Below are positions 14,140 through 40,656 of a DNA stretch of 64,000 bases, piece by piece. Positions within the stretch are counted from its first letter, which is position 1; each line of letters starts with the position of its first letter. The translations under genes were made by a program, and so were the position numbers. The DNA lies in the IMG/VR virus record IMGVR_UViG_3300021365_000004, positions 81,923 through 145,922 of that record; one strand, given 5' to 3'. This DNA comes from a virus. The notes under the pieces were generated by a model that worked only from the letters and a program-made list of their open reading frames with translations, did not search any database and had not been told where the DNA came from.

Positions 14140-15206
14140 AAGTAAGTATGTTCATCCAATGCTTCATTATATAAGCTCTTCATTATCTCATCGAGCTTCT
14201 CTTTCTTACCTTGTATCTCCAACCCATCAACATACTTGGATAATATGGTTAGGGTATCATCTACTCCTTCGATTTCATCATCATCAAAGAAGTCCATGTG
14301 TTTATTATCATCAACAACTGCAACGTGTAAAGGATTAGATGCATGTACTTTATCAAGGAATGAATCAAACCAATACGGATTGTCTTTGTTAACAACAATA
14401 ATTTTTACAAACTTGCCGTCGAATTTTGAGTAGTCCATGTTTTGTAACTCATCAAAATCTTTTATCTTACCATCGTCATAATATCCTTTCTCAAACATAG
14501 TGAGAGGATTGTGAACTGGGGTAATCTCTTTTGTCTCTGTATCAAAAATATGAAAATACTTTTTATCATTGTAATCAGACCAAGTGAATTCCATTTGGGA
14601 ACCTAGGTATCTTACATTCTTTACTTCTGATTTATGATGGAAATGACCACTGTAGACTTGTTCGAATCTCTTAAGATAAGATATGTCTAGTCCATGTTGA
14701 CATGTCATATTAGGTAATAGTAATGCACCTTCTATTTCAAAGTGACCCATACAGTGTGTTGCTGGAGCTGTCTGCATAAACTCTACCATGTCAGCATAGT
14801 TCTCGGGATTAATCCATGGAACTAATGCAATAGGAAAATCATCATACTCCTTTACAATAGGGTCGGCATGAACGGTAATGTTAGGTTGATTGTATAATAA
14901 TAACTCGGGTGAGTTAACATCATTCGTGTTTTTATAATATGTATCATGGTTACCTAGAATCAAGTCCATCTTGATTCCCCTTTCATTCATAGGCTCAACA
15001 AAGTGTTCGATGTTTGCTTTCATCGATGCAAAGTTGACATACTTACGTCTATCAAAGTAATCACCCATATGGATAATCTGTTTGATGTTATGCTCATCTA
15101 GATATGGAAAGAATATCTCTTCATAGAAACGTCCTTGATACTTGGACATTTCAACCATATCTGAACGGACACCACAATGGGTATCATTTAATATCGCTAT
15201 CTTCAT
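14136..15206 (-). CDS. 47: Recombination endonuclease subunit gp47 (Mre11/SbcD-like)
   Basis: 356-residue metallophosphoesterase, nuclease partner of gp46. The metal-binding motifs are in order: ILNDTHCG (D-x-H, residues 4-11), HMGDYFDRR (GD), LGNHDTYY (GNHD) and the distal GHFEIEGALL / YSGHFHHKS (GHxH). Overlaps of 4 nt with gp55 upstream and gp46 downstream make a tight gp55-47-46 operon. Length is close to T4 gp47 (339 residues). Confidence 0.96.
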   Translation of the reverse strand: MKIAILNDTHCGVRSDMVEMSKYQGRFYEEIFFPYLDEHNIKQIIHMGDYFDRRKYVNFASMKANIEHFVEPMNERGIKMDLILGNHDTYYKNTNDVNSPELLLYNQPNITVHADPIVKEYDDFPIALVPWINPENYADMVEFMQTAPATHCMGHFEIEGALLLPNMTCQHGLDISYLKRFEQVYSGHFHHKSEVKNVRYLGSQMEFTWSDYNDKKYFHIFDTETKEITPVHNPLTMFEKGYYDDGKIKDFDELQNMDYSKFDGKFVKIIVVNKDNPYWFDSFLDKVHASNPLHVAVVDDNKHMDFFDDDEIEGVDDTLTILSKYVDGLEIQGKKEKLDEIMKSLYNEALDEHTYL

Positions 15207-15760
15207 TCAGTAAAGTTTTCTAAGTTCTTGTTAGCTTTCTTCTTTTTGTTTTTTGATTTACGTGGTTCATACTCTACACGATTCATATTCTCTTGCATCC
15301 ATTCCACATTCGTGTTCGATAAACTTGGGTCGTGTTGACCATCGATGGTTGCAAATGAATCCATAGTAATAGATGATTCCATGATTTGTTTTTGTTTGAT
15401 GTAGACTTGTTTCTTTTCCTTCTGTATCCTTCTTAAGAAAGCGTAATAACAAATCTGAGTAACATATGCAAATGCATTGTTGGACTTTTCAACGTTGAAG
15501 TTACCAATGTATTGTATGCAATTTTCGATTGCATCACAAATCATTTCGTCACGGTAAGTATAGTTGATGAAATTGGGTCGAGTGGATAATCGGGTTGCAA
15601 TCTTATAGATGCACTCACCAATGTATTCAGTCATTCGAGGGGGTTCTTTCCCAGCAGATTCTGCCTTTGCAACTAAAGTATTAAACTCTGCAACTGCAGC
15701 TGTAAACTCTTTGTTGTTAACGTAGTGTTCTGCTTTTTTGGGGTCTTTTTTCTTAGTCAT
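15203..15760 (-). CDS. 55: Late-transcription sigma factor gp55
   Basis: 185-residue homologue of gp55, the small sigma factor that directs host RNA polymerase to TATAAATA late promoters. Region-2-like helices are recognisable: NYTYRDEMICDAIENCIQYI, FNVEKSNNAFAYVTQICYYA and FLRRIQKEKKQ. The C-terminus is basic and ends NLENFTE, which is in the right place for the short clamp-binding tail known in T4 gp55. The many TATAAATA-like boxes here fit its presence. A sigma-70-type promoter ends 6 nt before the ATG. Confidence 0.92.
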   Translation of the reverse strand: MTKKKDPKKAEHYVNNKEFTAAVAEFNTLVAKAESAGKEPPRMTEYIGECIYKIATRLSTRPNFINYTYRDEMICDAIENCIQYIGNFNVEKSNNAFAYVTQICYYAFLRRIQKEKKQVYIKQKQIMESSITMDSFATIDGQHDPSLSNTNVEWMQENMNRVEYEPRKSKNKKKKANKNLENFTE

Positions 15761-15766
15761 GTATAC

Positions 15767-15795
15767 ATTATACCCTTTTTATGTGGTATTGTAAG
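15767..15795 (-). promoter_or_regulatory. Sigma-70-type promoter of gp55, -10 box 6 nt from ATG
   Basis: CTTACA (15790-15795, three of six match), 17-nt spacer, perfect TATAAT (15767-15772), spacer GTATAC, ATG at 15760. It predicts a leaderless gp55 message made by unmodified host holoenzyme. The region 15773-15926 holds nothing else that I can support except a TATAAATA at 15924-15931. Confidence 0.62.
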
Positions 15796-15926: not shown

Positions 15927-16049
15927 TTATAACGTCTGAACGTGTCGTTTGAATTGTTCCAATTCTCGGACTGCACGTAACGCTCCAGGCTCTCGTTCGA
16001 GGAACGTCCATTGCATAAGAAGAATCACAGCAAAGGAATACTTTATCAT
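15927..16049 (-). CDS. 40-aa microprotein, last of the cassette
   Basis: The ATG (16047-16049) overlaps the TGA of the 67-aa gene (ATGA). The product starts MIKYSFAVILLMQWTF, a short hydrophobic N-terminus, followed by a charged helix (LEREPGALRAVRELEQF). The frame was chosen over a longer cysteine-rich frame at 15883-16095, which begins inside the previous gene and lacks any coupling. The TAA lies within a TATAAATA sequence (15924-15931). Function unknown. Confidence 0.45.
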   Translation of the reverse strand: MIKYSFAVILLMQWTFLEREPGALRAVRELEQFKRHVQTL

Positions 16050-16249
16050 GACACAAACTTGTCAATGATATAGAATGAAAGTAACATGAATCCAAATACA
16101 GAGATTTGAATTATCGATGCCCAAAAGACTTGTCTCATGGGATGCATCTCAACTAACTTTTCTATAGAACTTTCACTGGGTGATAGGTTAACAATCTGCA
16201 AAGCAGTTCTTTCGTTTTCGGGTTTTTGAAACCAAGGTACATGTATCAT
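16046..16249 (-). CDS. 67-aa membrane microprotein
   Basis: Starts at ATG 16247-16249, overlapping the TGA of the 27-aa gene (ATGA). An N-terminal polar half (MIHVPWFQKPENERTALQIV) is followed by one C-terminal transmembrane helix (VFWASIIQISVFGFMLLSF). It is the best supported member of the five-gene cassette. No family recognised; the topology resembles small tail-anchored phage proteins. Confidence 0.62.
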   Translation of the reverse strand: MIHVPWFQKPENERTALQIVNLSPSESSIEKLVEMHPMRQVFWASIIQISVFGFMLLSFYIIDKFVS

Positions 16250-16329
16250 TTTGGGTTATAAAGGTGAAGGGCTATTAGTACTATAAGTTGAAAGGTCAAC
16301 CCACTAATCAATAACCAAATATCAGACAT
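16246..16329 (-). CDS. 27-aa membrane microprotein
   Basis: ATG at 16327-16329 lies inside the last codons of the 33-aa gene (ATGTCTGA overlap). TGA at 16246-16248 overlaps the next ATG. The product is essentially one transmembrane helix (WLLISGLTFQLIVLIALHL). The claim rests on the tiled overlaps and on hydrophobicity. Confidence 0.42.
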   Translation of the reverse strand: MSDIWLLISGLTFQLIVLIALHLYNPK

Positions 16330-16423
16330 TAGGAATTAAACCTATAATGGATGCGATGAAAACAAGACAGAGACATACTATCTCTGTCTGTTCCCGTAGC
16401 TTGTTTAGTTTCTTAGAACTCAT
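16322..16423 (-). CDS. 33-aa membrane microprotein
   Basis: ATG 16421-16423, one base after the TGA of the 54-aa gene (TGA A ATG). A basic N-terminus (MSSKKLNKLREQTE) is followed by one hydrophobic helix (IVCLCLVFIASIIGLI), i.e. positive-inside topology. The overlap with the 27-aa gene supports translation. Function unknown. Confidence 0.45.
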   Translation of the reverse strand: MSSKKLNKLREQTEIVCLCLVFIASIIGLIPNV

Positions 16424-16424
16424 T

Positions 16425-16589
16425 TCAGTACGGTGAACTGAATGAAATTACTAAGAATGGTAGAGCAAATGGAAGAGTTAACAGCACTAGAAATTCGATA
16501 GTGTCACAGATTGCACAAACACGTTTGTTCTCTTTGACTTCTCTAGCTTTTCGTACCATGCTCTTCGCAAACAAAGTTGCTGTGGTCAT
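16425..16589 (-). CDS. 54-aa membrane protein with CxxC
   Basis: First gene of the cassette, with a clear Shine-Dalgarno (AAAGGAAAACC) before ATG 16587-16589. A basic N-terminal half (KSMVRKAREVKENKR) leads to CAIC (residues 25-28) and a C-terminal hydrophobic helix (FLVLLTLPFALPFLVISF). The CxxC just before the membrane could bind metal or form a disulfide. No family recognised. Upstream, 16590-16675 holds only possible promoter elements (a TCTAAATA at 16656-16663). Confidence 0.58.
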   Translation of the reverse strand: MTTATLFAKSMVRKAREVKENKRVCAICDTIEFLVLLTLPFALPFLVISFSSPY

Positions 16590-16675
16590 GGTTTTCCTTT
16601 TAATTAAGTTATAAAAATTTTGTATAATAGTATATAGACACCAATTATACGCACTTATTTAGACAAATAAAAATC

Positions 16676-17137
16676 CTAATGGATAGTTTTATTGGGGTCG
16701 AAGTCTTCAAGGTCGAAGTCTTCATCGATTAAGTCTATGTCTTCGGGGACAAGGGACTCCATTACTTTCGTTAGATAGTCTCTACGTACATCATCGGGTG
16801 TGTTCTTTTTATTGGTTAGAGGAATGGTTTGTGTTTCTACCATCTCCAACCACCTTGATGAAGCTTCATCATAGAATGGAACGAACTGCTGGTTCATATT
16901 ACTACGGTATAGTATTTGGTCATTTGGAATAACGATGATTGGGTCATCACTAAGAGGTGCATACGGATAGAAGGTTGCAAGAGTTTCAAGTTTATTTTGC
17001 ACGGTTAACTGACACATCATAGGTAGTGTTATCTCAATACCTTTAGTTGTGTCTCTTACCATACCCACCACTTCACTACCAGTTTTTAGTTTTACAACTT
17101 CGTATTTTTGTGGTGTTAAATCTGAGGGTCTTGTCAT
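16676..17137 (-). CDS. Conserved phage protein with Sm-like N-terminal region
   Basis: 153 residues from the ATG 17135-17137, which overlaps the UvsW TGA (ATGA); an upstream in-frame start inside uvsW is not needed. The N-terminus (YEVVKLKTGSEVVGMVRDTT, followed by GIEITLPMMCQL) has the strand pattern of an Sm/LSm-like small beta-barrel. The C-terminus is highly acidic (EDIDLIDEDFDLEDFD). A TATAAATA (17187-17194) about 50 nt upstream could drive late expression. An RNA- or clamp-related role is possible but unproven. Confidence 0.7.
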   Translation of the reverse strand: MTRPSDLTPQKYEVVKLKTGSEVVGMVRDTTKGIEITLPMMCQLTVQNKLETLATFYPYAPLSDDPIIVIPNDQILYRSNMNQQFVPFYDEASSRWLEMVETQTIPLTNKKNTPDDVRRDYLTKVMESLVPEDIDLIDEDFDLEDFDPNKTIH

Positions 17138-18558
17138 TTTAAATCGAACTGCCTTATCTCGTATGTAAAGTTTTCTTCGTTGTATATATTTATACGTTCT
17201 TTGAGGTGATTTAGGGTATGATTTTCGCATTGCATATCATCTGATATGTCAAACAATTTCATCTCTGTTTTACCGTCAGCCTTACGAAGTCCTCTACCTA
17301 TAGATTGAAGGTTTCTGATTCGACTTTTACTTGGGGATGCGAAGACAATATTGTCTATTCGTTTGATGTTAACACCTGTAGAGAAAGTTCCGTATGATGC
17401 TAGTATGACGTTATTGTTACTTCTCTCTACTATTTCTCTAACTGCTTCTCGGTCTTCTACATCTGTCCCACCATTGACATAGTGGAGCGTTCCCTTTCTT
17501 CGTGTGACCATGGGGTTGAACATTTCCCATAGTGGTTGTCCATGTTTCTCAATGTATTGAAATAGTACTAGGGTATTACCTTTCAGTGACCCCACAAGAT
17601 TAGTTATGAAATGATTTCTTTCTTGATGTGATACTAGATAATCCATCTCATCTTGGTATGACATTTTTTTCTGTTTAGTATGACGAAGTATGACACATTC
17701 TATTTTTAAATTTGCAATCGTTCCCGAATCCATCAACTCCTTTGTGCTTATGACCTTTTTGACAGGGCCGAATAAACCTTCTAGTTGTAGTCTGTGTACT
17801 TCTGTTCCGTCCAGTGTACCAGTACATCCAATACGTACAGCAGTAGTCTTCATCTTTTCAAGTATACCTTTCAGTACATTTGCTTTAAACAGATGAGCTT
17901 CGTCTCCTATTACAACATCGAATGATTGCATTACTTCCTTTGGTGCTTTACTAAATGACTGCCATGTGGTAACTGTGATTGGTGCATCGAAAACTTCTTG
18001 ACCATGATAAATTTTACAGATAGGGTCTTTGTATCCGTAGTCTTTAAAATCCTTAGTCATCTGTTCCACTAATGATGTGGTGGGTACAATGATGACTGTC
18101 TTAGAGTCATAGTATCTTGCAAGTAAATAAATGATTAGAGACTTACCACTTGCAGTGGGTGATAATAATAGTTGCCTACCATATTGAACTGCAGTTTTAA
18201 AAGCTTCTAACTGGTAATCTCTTGGTTCAAATGGAAGGTCTAATATACTAATCCAATCTTCTATTGATATCGGCCCGTTGTTTCTTTGCTTCTTACCAAT
18301 AACATCTTGAATACCTTCAAACTCGTAACCTCGTTCTCTGCAGAACTCATCTACGTATGGAAGTAACCCAATATAAATCTTATGTGTTTTGATTGAGAAA
18401 AGATATACTTTACCGTCCCACCATTTGTTTTTATAACTTGGCATGAACTTTGCGTTTGGTACAGTGAAAGAGAAATAGTCATGAAGGTCTTTGGCTAAAC
18501 CGTCATCACAGTCTACCCTCATGAAACATTCGTCCACCTTTGATACTATGACTTTCAT
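17134..18558 (-). CDS. uvsW: DNA/RNA helicase UvsW
   Basis: 474-residue superfamily 2 helicase that unwinds branched DNA and R-loops and helps switch T4 from origin- to recombination-dependent replication. Motif I SPTASGKS (133-140), motif Ia VPTTSLVEQM, motif II GDEAH (218-222), motif III GCTGTLDG, and C-terminal motifs VILASYGTFSTGVN and QSIGRGLRK are all present. The N-terminal domain matches UvsW (WWDGKVYLF). Its stop is coupled to the Sm-like gene. Confidence 0.95.
   Translation of the reverse strand: MKVIVSKVDECFMRVDCDDGLAKDLHDYFSFTVPNAKFMPSYKNKWWDGKVYLFSIKTHKIYIGLLPYVDEFCRERGYEFEGIQDVIGKKQRNNGPISIEDWISILDLPFEPRDYQLEAFKTAVQYGRQLLLSPTASGKSLIIYLLARYYDSKTVIIVPTTSLVEQMTKDFKDYGYKDPICKIYHGQEVFDAPITVTTWQSFSKAPKEVMQSFDVVIGDEAHLFKANVLKGILEKMKTTAVRIGCTGTLDGTEVHRLQLEGLFGPVKKVISTKELMDSGTIANLKIECVILRHTKQKKMSYQDEMDYLVSHQERNHFITNLVGSLKGNTLVLFQYIEKHGQPLWEMFNPMVTRRKGTLHYVNGGTDVEDREAVREIVERSNNNVILASYGTFSTGVNIKRIDNIVFASPSKSRIRNLQSIGRGLRKADGKTEMKLFDISDDMQCENHTLNHLKERINIYNEENFTYEIRQFDLK
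17187..17194 (-). promoter_or_regulatory. Late promoter, TATAAATA
   Basis: Exact late box inside the 3' end of uvsW, 49 nt before the ATG at 17137. Confidence 0.55.
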
Positions 18559-37706: not shown

Positions 37707-39287
37707 CTAATCGCCAATTGGCAACTTTCTTTTCACTTTTAAAAAGTCTTCAAGATTATTTATGGTAGAATAATCCATGCCTTTTACCCATGGGCCACCA
37801 CGAGTATAGTGAATACCACTATAATTATACTTTTCTTCGTGATTATCATACCCTTCCACAAAGATATAGTGTTCGGGTATAGGTGAAATCTTATCAGTCC
37901 ATTCGAATTGATGTAACTGTTTTCCTGTCCATGTGTTGACAACTTCGGGTGTTAACTTCTTACAGTCTTCATGTCCGTTGTTGAACACCATCATACTAGA
38001 CCACAGCTTCTTTGGATAATCGATATTAACTTCACCGTCAAACTTGGTTGCATCATGTTCGTATTGTGGGTATTTAATACATGCAACAGCATCGTTTGGG
38101 TTTAGATAGTAGAACATAGGTAGTATGCTTTTGTTGAAGATGAAATCATCATCAATGAAGATACTAAACCCTTCATAGTTCTCTAGGTAAGGTATTAGAA
38201 ATCTACTGTATGTAAATTCAGTACTTTGATTAGCATACTCTCTAGTATACTCGGGAATCTCAGCAATGTCAAGTATCTTGACTTCGGGTTCCCATTTAAC
38301 TTGGTCGTGCATCCAGCCTTTACCGAATCCACTTTTAATACTTTCTAGGATTGCAAACTTAGAACACTTAGACAAATCTCCATGCCTACTATCATGTCCA
38401 ATATAAATTGTTAGGGGTTTACCCTTTGCAAGTTCAAAGACTTGTTTGTTGAATGCATGTACTTCTTCTCTGAAATCTAAGTCCATCAATGCAGTATTGT
38501 ATTCAATACATCCATCAACATACGTAAATGAACAATGATATGCTTTACCTAATCTCGTTAACTTATTATACCACATTTCTAACACATCGTCTAGGCTTGA
38601 TGGTTCAACTTTCACGACATCAAAATTATCTATTACCATAATTTCCATATCATTATCATTCAATTCTTCAAACACACCACTCCTAATAGAGCCTGGATGT
38701 ATTCTAAATGTATAAGTTGGTTCTACATTATTACCAGTAATACCATGACTGATAACATATCCTTGAATAGGAGCTCTAAGACCTTCCTCTTGAATACTTT
38801 GAATTAACCAATGTGCTTTTGCACCATGATAATACATCGATAGTAATGACCCTTCTGCACTTTGGTCTCTATTTTCAACGGTATCCCAATCGATTAATGT
38901 GTCTATATCGACATATCCATCAGCATCTTTCATATCCATACCTGCTACGCCTGGGATAACCTTTCTAGGTTTCTCTGCATAACCTCTTGGTAGGAACTTG
39001 TGATAGGTTACTGATTCATTTCTCAAACCATTGAACCCACCAAATCTATTTTCCTTTCTTAGGTATTCAAAGTCTGACCACTTTGCAATTTTTACAGGTG
39101 GAAGAATCTCTTTGAATAACCAGTCTAGAATTTTATATGTTTCACTAGTTTTACTAAAGCCTGGTTCTATATTAAATGAACCTAGATGGAAATTACCAAT
39201 GTGTCTTCTATCTTGGTCTCTTAGTTTGTCCCAATCTTGTGGGATAATTAACTCTTTTGCTTCTTCAAGGGTGCTTATATTTTTCAT
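37707..39287 (-). CDS. ParB-like domain fused to glycosyltransferase
   Basis: 526 residues from ATG 39285-39287, fixed by a late box 5 nt upstream and by a terminator just behind it; the frame continues upstream but only as shadow of the repeat gene. The centre (AKAHWLIQSIQEEGLRAPIQ, about 157-176) looks like a ParB/sulfiredoxin-type domain. The C-terminal part (about 290-510) resembles family-8-type glycosyltransferases: LTIYIGHDSRHGD, YSRFLIPYLENYEGFSIFID, metal motif DDD (379-381), and KLWSSMMVFNNGH. It could glycosylate virion or cell-surface material. The fold calls are by pattern. Confidence 0.72.
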   Translation of the reverse strand: MKNISTLEEAKELIIPQDWDKLRDQDRRHIGNFHLGSFNIEPGFSKTSETYKILDWLFKEILPPVKIAKWSDFEYLRKENRFGGFNGLRNESVTYHKFLPRGYAEKPRKVIPGVAGMDMKDADGYVDIDTLIDWDTVENRDQSAEGSLLSMYYHGAKAHWLIQSIQEEGLRAPIQGYVISHGITGNNVEPTYTFRIHPGSIRSGVFEELNDNDMEIMVIDNFDVVKVEPSSLDDVLEMWYNKLTRLGKAYHCSFTYVDGCIEYNTALMDLDFREEVHAFNKQVFELAKGKPLTIYIGHDSRHGDLSKCSKFAILESIKSGFGKGWMHDQVKWEPEVKILDIAEIPEYTREYANQSTEFTYSRFLIPYLENYEGFSIFIDDDFIFNKSILPMFYYLNPNDAVACIKYPQYEHDATKFDGEVNIDYPKKLWSSMMVFNNGHEDCKKLTPEVVNTWTGKQLHQFEWTDKISPIPEHYIFVEGYDNHEEKYNYSGIHYTRGGPWVKGMDYSTINNLEDFLKVKRKLPIGD

Positions 39288-39292
39288 ACTGG

Positions 39293-39300
39293 TATTTAGA
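39293..39300 (-). promoter_or_regulatory. Late-type promoter, TCTAAATA, 5 nt before ATG
   Basis: Spacer CCAGT, ATG at 39287; sits between the terminator of the repeat gene and the glycosyltransferase. Confidence 0.58.
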
Positions 39301-39304
39301 GGAT

Positions 39305-39331
39305 AAAAAAAACCCCTCTTTCGAGGGGTTT
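39305..39331 (-). terminator. Intrinsic terminator of the adhesin unit
   Basis: Minus strand: CCCCTC-GAAA-GAGGGG stem followed by eight T. It ends the transcript of the repeat gene 39352-40656. Confidence 0.87.
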
Positions 39332-39351
39332 GTTCACTGTCGGGTAAGTTC

Positions 39352-40656
39352 CTATGATGTAATTGGGGTTGCAGGCCACTGTTGTGATACCACTCCATCC
39401 CATCTTGCTTCGGGGGTTTGACCCTGTCTTGCATATGTGAATGGACTTCTGTGTTGATACGTAAACGGTGTTTGACCTGTTCTTTGATATGTGAACGGAC
39501 TTCTATGTTGATACGTAAACGGTGTTTGACCCTGTCTTGCATACGTGAATGGAGACCTGTGCTGATAAGTGAACGGTGTTTGACCTGTTCTCTGATAAGT
39601 AAACGGAGTCTGTGCATTACGTATATTAGGTTCTTGAGCAGCTGCAATGTATGGATACGGTTGCTGTGCATTTCTAATATTAGGTTCCTGTGCGCTTACT
39701 GGATTCTGATAAGTGAACGGTGACCTGTACTGATATGTAGCAGGTTGACGTGCATTACTAGGATTCTGATAAGTGAACGGACTTCTATATTGATAAGTGA
39801 ACGGAGTCTGAGCATCCCTAATGTTAGGCTCTTGTGCAGAACGTATATTAGGTTCTTGAGCAGAACGTATATTAGGTTCTTGAGCAGATACAGGGTTCCT
39901 ATATGTAGATGGAGACCTGTGATTGTACGTAAACGGTGTTTGACTGTTTCTAATATTAGGTTCTTGTTGACTTCTAATATTAGGTTGTTGTGCAGCTCTA
40001 ATGTTCGGTTCTTGTGCAGATACAGGGTTCCTATAAGTGAAAGGAGACCTGTGCTGATAAGTGAACGGTGTTTGACTATTACGTATATTAGGTTCTTGCT
40101 GACTTCTAATGTTAGGTTGCTGTATGTTTCTAATATTAGGTTCTTGAGCAGATACAGGGTTTCTATAAGTGAACGGACTTCTATATTGATAAGTGAACGG
40201 AGTCTGTGCAGAACGTATATTAGGTTCTTGTTGACTTCTAATATTAGGCTCTTGTGCAGAACGTATATTAGGTTCTTGACCATTTACAGGACTTCTATAT
40301 GTAAATGGTGACCTATAGTTGTACGTAAATGGAGACCTATAACTGTATGTAAATGGATTCCTTGCGTTGTTAGGTTGTCTCGCAGACATAGGGTGTCTGT
40401 AAGTAAACGGATTCTGAAACGTAAACGGTTGCTGTCCATTCGCTGGATATCTTGCACTATATGTAAATGGTGCTTGGAACGTAAAAGGTTGTTGAGCACT
40501 CGCTGGATATCTTGCACTATATGTAAATGGTGCTTGGAACGTAAAAGGTTGTTGAGCACTCGCTGGATATCTGTTTGCATATGTGAACGGATTCTGAGAC
40601 GCGACAGGTTGCTGTGCGTTCTTAATAGTAGGTTGTTGTCTATTACCTATAGGCAC
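39352..40656 (-). CDS. Proline-phased repeat fibre/adhesin protein (C)
   Basis: 434 residues, GTG start (40654-40656) with AGGAG upstream. Almost the whole protein is short repeats: QQPFTFQAPFTYSARYPAS, RSPFTYNY, AQEPNIRN, QTPFTYQH. All proline-to-proline spacings I checked are even (6, 8 or 10, or 2 in PYPY). The C-terminus is ARWDGVVSQQWPATPITS. DNA encoding residues about 33-72 contains a perfect 60-nt duplication. Together with three other genes it forms a paralogue set in the fibre region, so a virion adhesin or fibre role is inferred. Confidence 0.75.
   Translation of the reverse strand: MPIGNRQQPTIKNAQQPVASQNPFTYANRYPASAQQPFTFQAPFTYSARYPASAQQPFTFQAPFTYSARYPANGQQPFTFQNPFTYRHPMSARQPNNARNPFTYSYRSPFTYNYRSPFTYRSPVNGQEPNIRSAQEPNIRSQQEPNIRSAQTPFTYQYRSPFTYRNPVSAQEPNIRNIQQPNIRSQQEPNIRNSQTPFTYQHRSPFTYRNPVSAQEPNIRAAQQPNIRSQQEPNIRNSQTPFTYNHRSPSTYRNPVSAQEPNIRSAQEPNIRSAQEPNIRDAQTPFTYQYRSPFTYQNPSNARQPATYQYRSPFTYQNPVSAQEPNIRNAQQPYPYIAAAQEPNIRNAQTPFTYQRTGQTPFTYQHRSPFTYARQGQTPFTYQHRSPFTYQRTGQTPFTYQHRSPFTYARQGQTPEARWDGVVSQQWPATPITS
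39480..40640 (-). repeat. Proline-phased codon repeats of gene 39352-40656
   Basis: Coding repeats of 18, 24, 30 and 60 nt with drifted codons. No CRISPR-like constant spacers; the variation is at protein-repeat boundaries. Confidence 0.8.
40441..40560 (-). repeat. Perfect 60-bp tandem duplication
   Basis: Bases 40441-40500 and 40501-40560 are identical. Each encodes 20 residues, in frame, so this is a recent duplication in the repeat gene. Confidence 0.95.

What the first reader, a model, noticed from the sequence alone, without database searches (positions are those of the whole stretch)
15927..16589. Cassette of five overlapping membrane microproteins
Products of 54, 33, 27, 67 and 40 residues are tiled with ATGA, ATGTCTGA or 1-nt junctions. 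At least four carry one hydrophobic helix. The first has a Shine-Dalgarno and a membrane-proximal CAIC. Such exact tiling is unlikely by chance. The position between UvsW and gp55 is unusual for lysis genes.
Basis: partly seen in the sequence, partly recalled or inferred. Interest (0 to 1): 0.68.

Follow-up and report, generated by a model that had tools for sequence, protein, structure and literature searches.

The report
Phage-borne redox-linked membrane microproteins
A marine virus of bacteria carries a conserved set of five tiny overlapping membrane-protein genes, and two of them match unannotated mini-proteins in streamlined, SAR86-like ocean bacteria that sit beside electron-carrier and peroxide-removing enzymes, so the virus may be adjusting its host's respiration or redox balance.

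Summary
Five ORFs (54, 33, 27, 67, 40 aa; minus strand, 15927-16589) are tiled between the uvsW-p184 pair and gp55. No simulated sequence (0 of 20,000) gave a chain of even four. All five are under purifying selection. Four families (g54, g33, g67, g40) recur in 51-53 of 57 distinct relative loci, with shuffled order and conserved overlap junctions. They are genuine genes.

They do not look like a lysis cassette. In relatives the same cassette gains a membrane-anchored c-type cytochrome (22 of 57 loci), a ferredoxin, IscU/IscA or an EF-hand export. The cytochrome and g67 also travel to an nrdB-glutaredoxin locus and to IscS/IscU clusters.

The decisive evidence is in ~1 Mb, 34% GC gammaproteobacterial genomes (probably SAR86). 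g33 has homologues in 85 of 107 genomes, directly beside an exported glutathione peroxidase in 28 of 28 loci inspected. g67 occurs beside a blue-copper electron carrier in 18 genomes (16 also with a second phage-family microprotein, p55) and beside DoxX in 3.

Best reading: host-related single-pass microproteins forming a phage accessory module for periplasmic electron transfer or redox defence. Association is shown; the biochemical step is inferred. g54, g40 and g27 have no identified host counterpart.

The parts
16425..16589 (-). g54: 54-aa microprotein, predicted amphipathic N-terminal helix (3-18) plus one long hydrophobic helix (23-51), N-in by positive-inside; first gene of the cassette
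   Evidence: 53 of 57 distinct loci; 156 stretches in IMG/VR; low-moderate confidence model, pLDDT 68; no homologue in 107 host-like genomes
16322..16423 (-). g33: 33-aa single-pass microprotein; homologue of a 25-33-aa gene beside exported glutathione peroxidase in SAR86-like chromosomes
   Evidence: 51 of 57; 85 of 107 genomes; 28 of 28 inspected loci beside GPx, nearly all between fadB and rpiA
16246..16329 (-). g27: 27-aa hydrophobic peptide MSDIWLLISGLTFQLIVLIALHLYNPK, overlaps g33 by 8 nt
   Evidence: 11 of 57 loci, all same subgroup; dN/dS about 0.13 on two pairs; host homologue not tested
16046..16249 (-). g67: 67-aa microprotein, cytoplasmic N-terminal part plus C-terminal TM helix (37-66 in the model); homologue of a protein beside blue-copper carrier (18 genomes) or DoxX (3 genomes) in SAR86-like chromosomes
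   Evidence: 51 of 57; 533 stretches; helix pLDDT >90
15927..16049 (-). g40: 40-aa peptide, short N-terminal hydrophobic segment then conserved DREPGALRAVR(D/E)xEQFK tail
   Evidence: (13 + 38 loci in two subfamilies); no homologue in 107 host-like genomes with the second-subfamily profile
16590..16675 (-). Upstream region of the cassette: conserved CTAAATA (T4-late-promoter-like) and TATAAT/TTATAAC boxes, then SD AGGAAAACC
   Evidence: CTAAATA 18 occurrences in 33 distinct upstream regions; motif only, no expression data
16676..17230 (-). p184: conserved T4-like cyanophage neighbour ('methylamine utilization', PHROG 527/471) between UvsW and the cassette; boundary gene
   Evidence: P-HM2 has uvsW-p184-gp55 with no insert
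15203..15760 (-). gp55 late sigma factor; boundary gene downstream of the cassette
   Evidence: phrog_234, 4e-59

Best explanation
The five genes are one translationally coupled operon of single-pass inner-membrane microproteins, carried as accessory cargo by a marine T4-like phage whose host is probably a SAR86-like gammaproteobacterium. At least g33 and g67 are homologues of chromosomal microproteins that, in the host group, sit beside a periplasmic redox protein: g33 beside an exported glutathione peroxidase, g67 beside a blue-copper carrier or DoxX. Most likely they are small membrane partners (anchors, docking or assembly subunits) of periplasmic electron carriers and peroxide-detoxifying enzymes, made during infection to keep electron flow, proton-motive force or redox balance going. 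Many relatives add their own carrier (c-type cytochrome, ferredoxin) or Fe-S assembly genes to the same cassette; the window's phage has no cytochrome in its 146-kb record and would rely on the host's carrier. Shown: gene reality, conservation, selection, host homologues, genomic association. Inferred: host identity, expression, membrane insertion, direction of gene transfer, physical partnership, and the effect on respiration.
For: Purifying selection and intact frames in 57 distinct loci. The cassette also contains a CAACH cytochrome in 22 of 57 loci (Pfam Cytochrom_C 1e-8, PDB c4/c552/c554 hits), a ferredoxin (L045), EF-hand exports (L033, L039, L071) and IscU + IscA (L033, L039). Cytochrome and g67 sit together in a second, unrelated place, nrdB-[cytc/g67]-glutaredoxin, and near IscS/IscU/ferritin (L193) where g33 and a g40-like ORF are present too; cytochrome also neighbours an alternative oxidase (L171, L225; AOX 4e-70). 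Bacterial homologues: g67 beside plastocyanin/azurin-family carrier in 18 genomes and DoxX in 3; host p55 profile matches phage p55 at 2e-8 and host g67 profile matches phage members at 1e-23; g33 in 85 of 107 genomes and beside GPx in 28 of 28 sampled loci, control order 1 of 57. G000 itself encodes IscU and IscA. Published: an IscU-encoding phage genome from an ocean virome was assigned to SAR86 by IscU phylogeny (PMC5332604).
Against: g54 and g40, the first and last genes, have no homologue in the 107 host-like genomes, and g27 was not tested there. The window's own phage has no cytochrome c. g67's commonest phage neighbours are nrdB and glutaredoxin without a cytochrome (41 of 79 loci), so its partner could be something else, or both places could simply be cargo hot spots. 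No biochemical, expression or complex-structure data. The host group is not named by the tool; SAR86 is inferred from the L319 title (Gammaproteobacteria bacterium TMED226), genome size, GC and the literature.
Confidence: 0.55

Rival explanations
1. Dominant-negative or rerouting version of the same anatomy: the phage microproteins displace their host counterparts from a redox complex, shutting down or redirecting respiration or peroxide defence rather than supporting it.
For: Same host homologies and neighbours. Phage copies often come without the partner enzyme (no cupredoxin or GPx gene seen beside them; the window genome has no cytochrome), as expected of an interfering subunit.
Against: In 22 of 57 cassettes and in many nrdB loci a complete, apparently functional cytochrome c is supplied alongside, which fits supplementation better than inhibition.
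Confidence: 0.18
2. Cargo hot spot only: unrelated small membrane proteins with separate functions sit together because uvsW-gp55 and nrdB-grx are permissive late or middle insertion sites; there is no joint module.
For: Gene order and content vary between loci; g67 alone also occurs beside glycosyltransferases or curlin-like genes (L288, L316); g54, g40 and g27 have no link to redox genes other than through the cassette.
Against: g54-g33-g67-g40 persist together in most of 57 loci despite rearrangement; a g40-like ORF, g33 and g67 move together to another site with cytc, IscS and IscU (L193); the cytc-g67-p55 unit in phages resembles the host g67-p55-cupredoxin operon.
Confidence: 0.17
3. Lysis cassette (holin, antiholin, spanin-like proteins).
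For: Small single-TM proteins in an overlapping cluster; no lysis genes were identified in the window, though not every window gene was classified.
Against: Two of the five families are conserved chromosomal genes in bacteria, beside redox genes; relatives add cytochrome, ferredoxin and Fe-S genes rather than endolysin or spanin genes; no Pfam or PHROG lysis match.
Confidence: 0.04
4. Envelope protection or superinfection exclusion by single-TM proteins (Imm/Sp-like).
For: Size and single-TM form; positive-inside topology places short tails in the periplasm.
Against: Host homologues in redox operons and association with electron carriers are not predicted by this reading.
Confidence: 0.04
5. 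Fortuitous or untranslated ORFs.
For: Very short, no database family.
Against: Chance simulation 0 of 20,000, purifying selection, intact frames across 57 distinct loci, conserved junctions.
Confidence: 0.02

Closest known systems
Auxiliary metabolic genes of marine T4-like phages (cyanophage psbA, hli, PTOX, petE, petF sets)
   Same: Marine T4-like phage carries host-related membrane and electron-transfer genes as small cargo; relatives add a periplasmic carrier, ferredoxin and AOX, the respiratory counterparts of petE, petF and PTOX.
   Different: Host appears to be a non-photosynthetic gammaproteobacterium; the core cargo is 27-67-aa single-TM proteins of no known family; no HLIP motif.
IscU/A-type-carrier encoding T4-like phages assigned to gammaproteobacteria including SAR86 (Nishimura et al. 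2017, PMC5332604)
   Same: Same broad phage type and Fe-S theme; IscU and IscA occur in this genome and inside the uvsW-gp55 cassette of L033 and L039.
   Different: The passages read report Fe-S genes only; the microproteins and their link to cytochrome c, cupredoxin and GPx are not described there.
Small single-TM respiratory subunits such as CydX (cytochrome bd) and CcoM/CcoQ (cbb3 oxidase) (own knowledge)
   Same: Works like: 30-70-aa single-pass proteins tied to respiratory enzymes, usually unannotated.
   Different: No sequence match in Pfam; the host neighbours here are periplasmic carriers, GPx and DoxX, not oxidase catalytic subunits.
DUF2970 (PF11174)
   Same: p55 looks similar by eye (amphipathic start with LLIGV, then one TM) to the DUF2970 proteins of the same host genomes.
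   Different: Profile-profile comparison inconclusive (6.8% probability); different host locus (between trmA-like and nfuA-like genes).
Phage holins and small lysis proteins
   Same: Small TM proteins in a compact overlapping cluster.
   Different: No lysis partners; homologues are bacterial chromosomal genes in redox operons.

Membership tests
Phage auxiliary (host-derived) metabolic genes | Homologues encoded in cellular host chromosomes, outside prophages | tested here: met
   g33 in 85 of 107 genomes at a syntenic fadB/GPx/rpiA place; g67 in bacterial operons. Not met for g54 and g40; g27 not tested.
Phage auxiliary (host-derived) metabolic genes | Gene acts in host metabolism | not testable with these tools
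   Only genomic association with redox genes; no enzymatic domain in the microproteins.
Phage auxiliary (host-derived) metabolic genes | Host-to-phage direction of transfer | not tested
   Family proteins are too short for a robust tree; direction inferred from conserved chromosomal synteny of g33.
Phage auxiliary (host-derived) metabolic genes | Expressed during infection | not testable with these tools
   SD and conserved promoter-like boxes only.
Holin / lysis cassette | One or more TM segments per protein | tested here: met
   (weak for g40)
Holin / lysis cassette | Neighbouring endolysin or spanin genes | tested here: not met
   Neighbours are p184/uvsW and gp55 in nearly all relatives; added genes are redox genes
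Holin / lysis cassette | Lethal, timed membrane permeabilisation on expression | not testable with these tools
   needs experiment
High-light-inducible proteins (HLIP) | ExxNGRxAMxGF chlorophyll-binding motif | tested here: not met
   No such motif in any family alignment read
DUF2970 (for p55) | Significant profile match to PF11174 | tested here: inconclusive
   hmmscan no match; hhalign probability 6.8%, E 0.005 for one pair
Class I c-type cytochrome (relatives' cassette gene) | CxxCH haem site and cytochrome c fold family match | tested here: met
   CAACH invariant; PF00034 1e-8, above cut-off; PDB c4/c552/c554 matches

The most novel reading that the evidence does not exclude
Phages of SAR86-like bacteria carry a modular respiratory or redox remodelling kit whose core is a set of previously undescribed single-pass microproteins. 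In the host the same microproteins are obligate small partners of periplasmic electron carriers and of a glutathione peroxidase; the phage swaps in its own versions, and often its own cytochrome c, to take over periplasmic electron flow during infection.
Probability: 0.4. Interest if true: 0.82.

Novelty: new variant of a known kind. Interest (0 to 1): 0.62.

Why it matters
Phage takeover of photosynthesis is textbook in cyanobacteria; a comparable, widespread takeover of respiration in abundant heterotrophic ocean bacteria is little described. The phage cassette also exposes a tiny gene family (25-33 aa, beside glutathione peroxidase) found in 85 of 107 genomes of a streamlined marine lineage, easily missed by gene callers, together with concrete partner hypotheses (cupredoxin, GPx, DoxX, cytochrome c). 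Because a first SAR86 isolate now exists (PMC11582366), the bacterial side can be tested directly. The g33 and g67 homologies also offer a host-assignment marker for uncultured T4-like phages.

Tried and rejected
Lysis reading: rejected because g33 and g67 are chromosomal redox-operon genes. CAIC as a functional metal or redox motif in g54: not conserved outside the window's subgroup. DNA search against cultured phages: no match. Protein searches of g54, g67 and the cytochrome against cultured phages: no match, so no annotated cultured relative exists in that collection; the nearest UvsW is about 50% identical, in cyanomyoviruses. AOX in 20 phage records including the window's: none found, but nothing rang in the control genomes either, so that negative shows little. 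p55 as DUF2970: inconclusive. g54 and g40 in 107 host-like genomes: none. The control for g33 uses an unrelated order with larger genomes (1 of 57); synteny carries more weight than that count. Single-helix structure models were not searched against structure libraries because matches of lone helices mean little.

Full report
WHAT WAS CLAIMED AND WHETHER IT IS THERE. The five ORFs exist exactly as described, on the minus strand between 15927 and 16589, with a 1-nt gap, an 8-nt overlap and two ATGA overlaps. The neighbours are UvsW, a conserved 184-aa gene (p184) and, downstream, the late sigma factor gp55. In the cyanophage P-HM2 the same backbone uvsW-p184-gp55 has no insert, so the cassette is an insertion in a core T4-like gene string. 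A first-order Markov simulation of the 915-nt interval gave chains of at most three tiled ORFs in 20,000 trials; the real sequence has five.

THEY ARE GENES. A gp55 search returned 80 viral contigs, 57 of them distinct in this interval. g54 occurs in 53, g33 in 51, g67 in 51 and g40 (two subfamilies) in 51; g27 in 11. Order shuffles (window g54-g33-g27-g67-g40; L013 g54-g33-g27-g40-g67; L032 g54-g33-cytc-g67-g40), yet characteristic junctions persist (g33>g27 always -8 nt; g67>g40 and g40>g67 mostly -4). Pooled NG86 dN/dS is 0.13-0.58, with an excess of synonymous change for each gene (g54 is the weakest, p 0.019 against one relative and 9e-5 against another). Only the first gene regularly has a Shine-Dalgarno (49 of 53), which fits translational coupling of the rest. 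Conserved CTAAATA and TATAAT-like boxes lie upstream of g54. No member matches Pfam or a PHROG of known function.

WHAT TRAVELS WITH THEM. In 22 of 57 loci the cassette also encodes a 144-149-aa membrane-anchored c-type cytochrome with an invariant CAACH. Other loci carry a two-cluster ferredoxin (L045), EF-hand exported proteins (L033, L039, L071), IscU and IscA (L033, L039) and further small TM proteins. A cytochrome scan found 485 encoding stretches: beside the uvsW-gp55 place there is a second one, directly downstream of nrdB and upstream of glutaredoxin, where the cytochrome often stands next to a g67 homologue (L202 nrdB-cytc-g67-grx; L190 nrdB-g67-cytc-grx), and in a few contigs next to an alternative oxidase (L171, L225). 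In L193 the order is cytochrome-ferritin-IscS-IscU-(g40-like)-g33-g67 at yet another place. g67 itself has 533 stretches; among 79 inspected loci the commonest context is nrdB-g67-grx (41). The window's own 146-kb record has no cytochrome c but has IscU, IscA, NrdB and glutaredoxin; between its NrdB and glutaredoxin sit a MazG-like and a QueC-like gene instead (identified by eye).

HOST COUNTERPARTS. A scan of 84,980 bacterial and archaeal genomes with the g67 profile gave four contigs: three look like phage, but L319 (Gammaproteobacteria bacterium TMED226) is a bacterial chromosome in which g67 directly follows a plastocyanin/azurin-family protein. In the 107 genomes of that family, two carry this g67 type and 19 the second type; 16 of the 19 have the conserved gene set g67-p55-cupredoxin, where p55 is also a phage-cassette family (L006/L007 group, L071), and three have g67-DoxX. 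Each main sequence type of phage g67 (HPMRQ type; FDPLVMFVVIP type; WWxxRQLxFVAIAT type) has its own chromosomal match. g33 is even more telling: 85 of 107 genomes have a homologue, and in all 28 inspected loci it lies beside an exported glutathione peroxidase, between fadB and rpiA wherever the contig extends that far; an unrelated order gave 1 of 57. g54 and g40 were not found there. The family has about 0.8-1.5 Mb genomes and 34% GC in sampled regions, matching SAR86 (1.05-1.65 Mb, 31-40% GC, PMC11582366), but the tool does not name it, so SAR86 is an inference. It agrees with a published IscU-encoding ocean virus genome assigned to SAR86 (PMC5332604).

MECHANISM. Inferred: the products insert as single-pass helices (models: g67 TM helix at pLDDT above 90; g54 amphipathic helix plus TM at low-moderate confidence), with N-terminal positive charge pointing to N-in for g54, g33 and g67. 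Since the host homologues sit beside a periplasmic electron carrier, a peroxidase or DoxX, the simplest common role is a small membrane partner of periplasmic redox proteins. Relatives that bring their own cytochrome would supplement electron flow; the window's phage would work with host carriers. An inhibitory version of the same model cannot be excluded.

COMPARISON AND NOVELTY. It works like the accessory electron-transport gene sets of cyanophages and like small respiratory subunits, but belongs to no known family tested. Phage-borne host-related metabolic genes are a known kind; a core made of undescribed microproteins with chromosomal redox-operon counterparts is a new variant. Literature search was limited to open PMC text with few queries; none of the papers read describes this cassette.

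Noticed in passing
window 15203-15790 (minus): gp55 has a TATAAT exactly 12 nt before its ATG in 8 of 10 distinct upstream sequences with a TTACA-like box further up: the late sigma factor is probably made from a leaderless sigma70-type transcript of its own.
   Followed up: partly
L369 1501-1602 and L390-L409: Conserved 25-33-aa single-TM gene beside exported glutathione peroxidase in 85 of 107 genomes of a streamlined marine gammaproteobacterial family (28 loci inspected); a candidate unannotated host gene family in its own right.
   Followed up: yes
L171 6396-6968; L225 5441-6007: Alternative oxidase (PF01786, 4e-70) encoded by T4-like marine phage contigs next to the cytochrome c gene.
   Followed up: partly
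L033 and L039, between p184 and gp55: IscU and A-type Fe-S carrier inserted in the same uvsW-gp55 place, downstream of g33, EF-hand protein and g67.
   Followed up: partly
L020 3539-3742, L021, L080: Extra tiny hydrophobic ORF ending KYLIYAAILIPWELGIVLLFSLV between g67 and g40.
   Followed up: no
Cytochrome family, e.g. L007 3023-3466: Invariant CTGxC pair about 40 residues before the CAACH haem site; possible disulfide or metal site.
   Followed up: no
L316 3207-4171: g67 homologue directly downstream of a curlin-repeat-like gene in a viral contig; curli-type operons are reported in pelagimyophages (PMC7029224).
   Followed up: no
window 37707-40580: Three minus-strand ORFs of highly repetitive, R/L/H-rich sequence (VKHRL, NLIYVLHR repeats), possibly the wrong frame of a repeat-bearing tail-fibre-like gene.
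   Followed up: no
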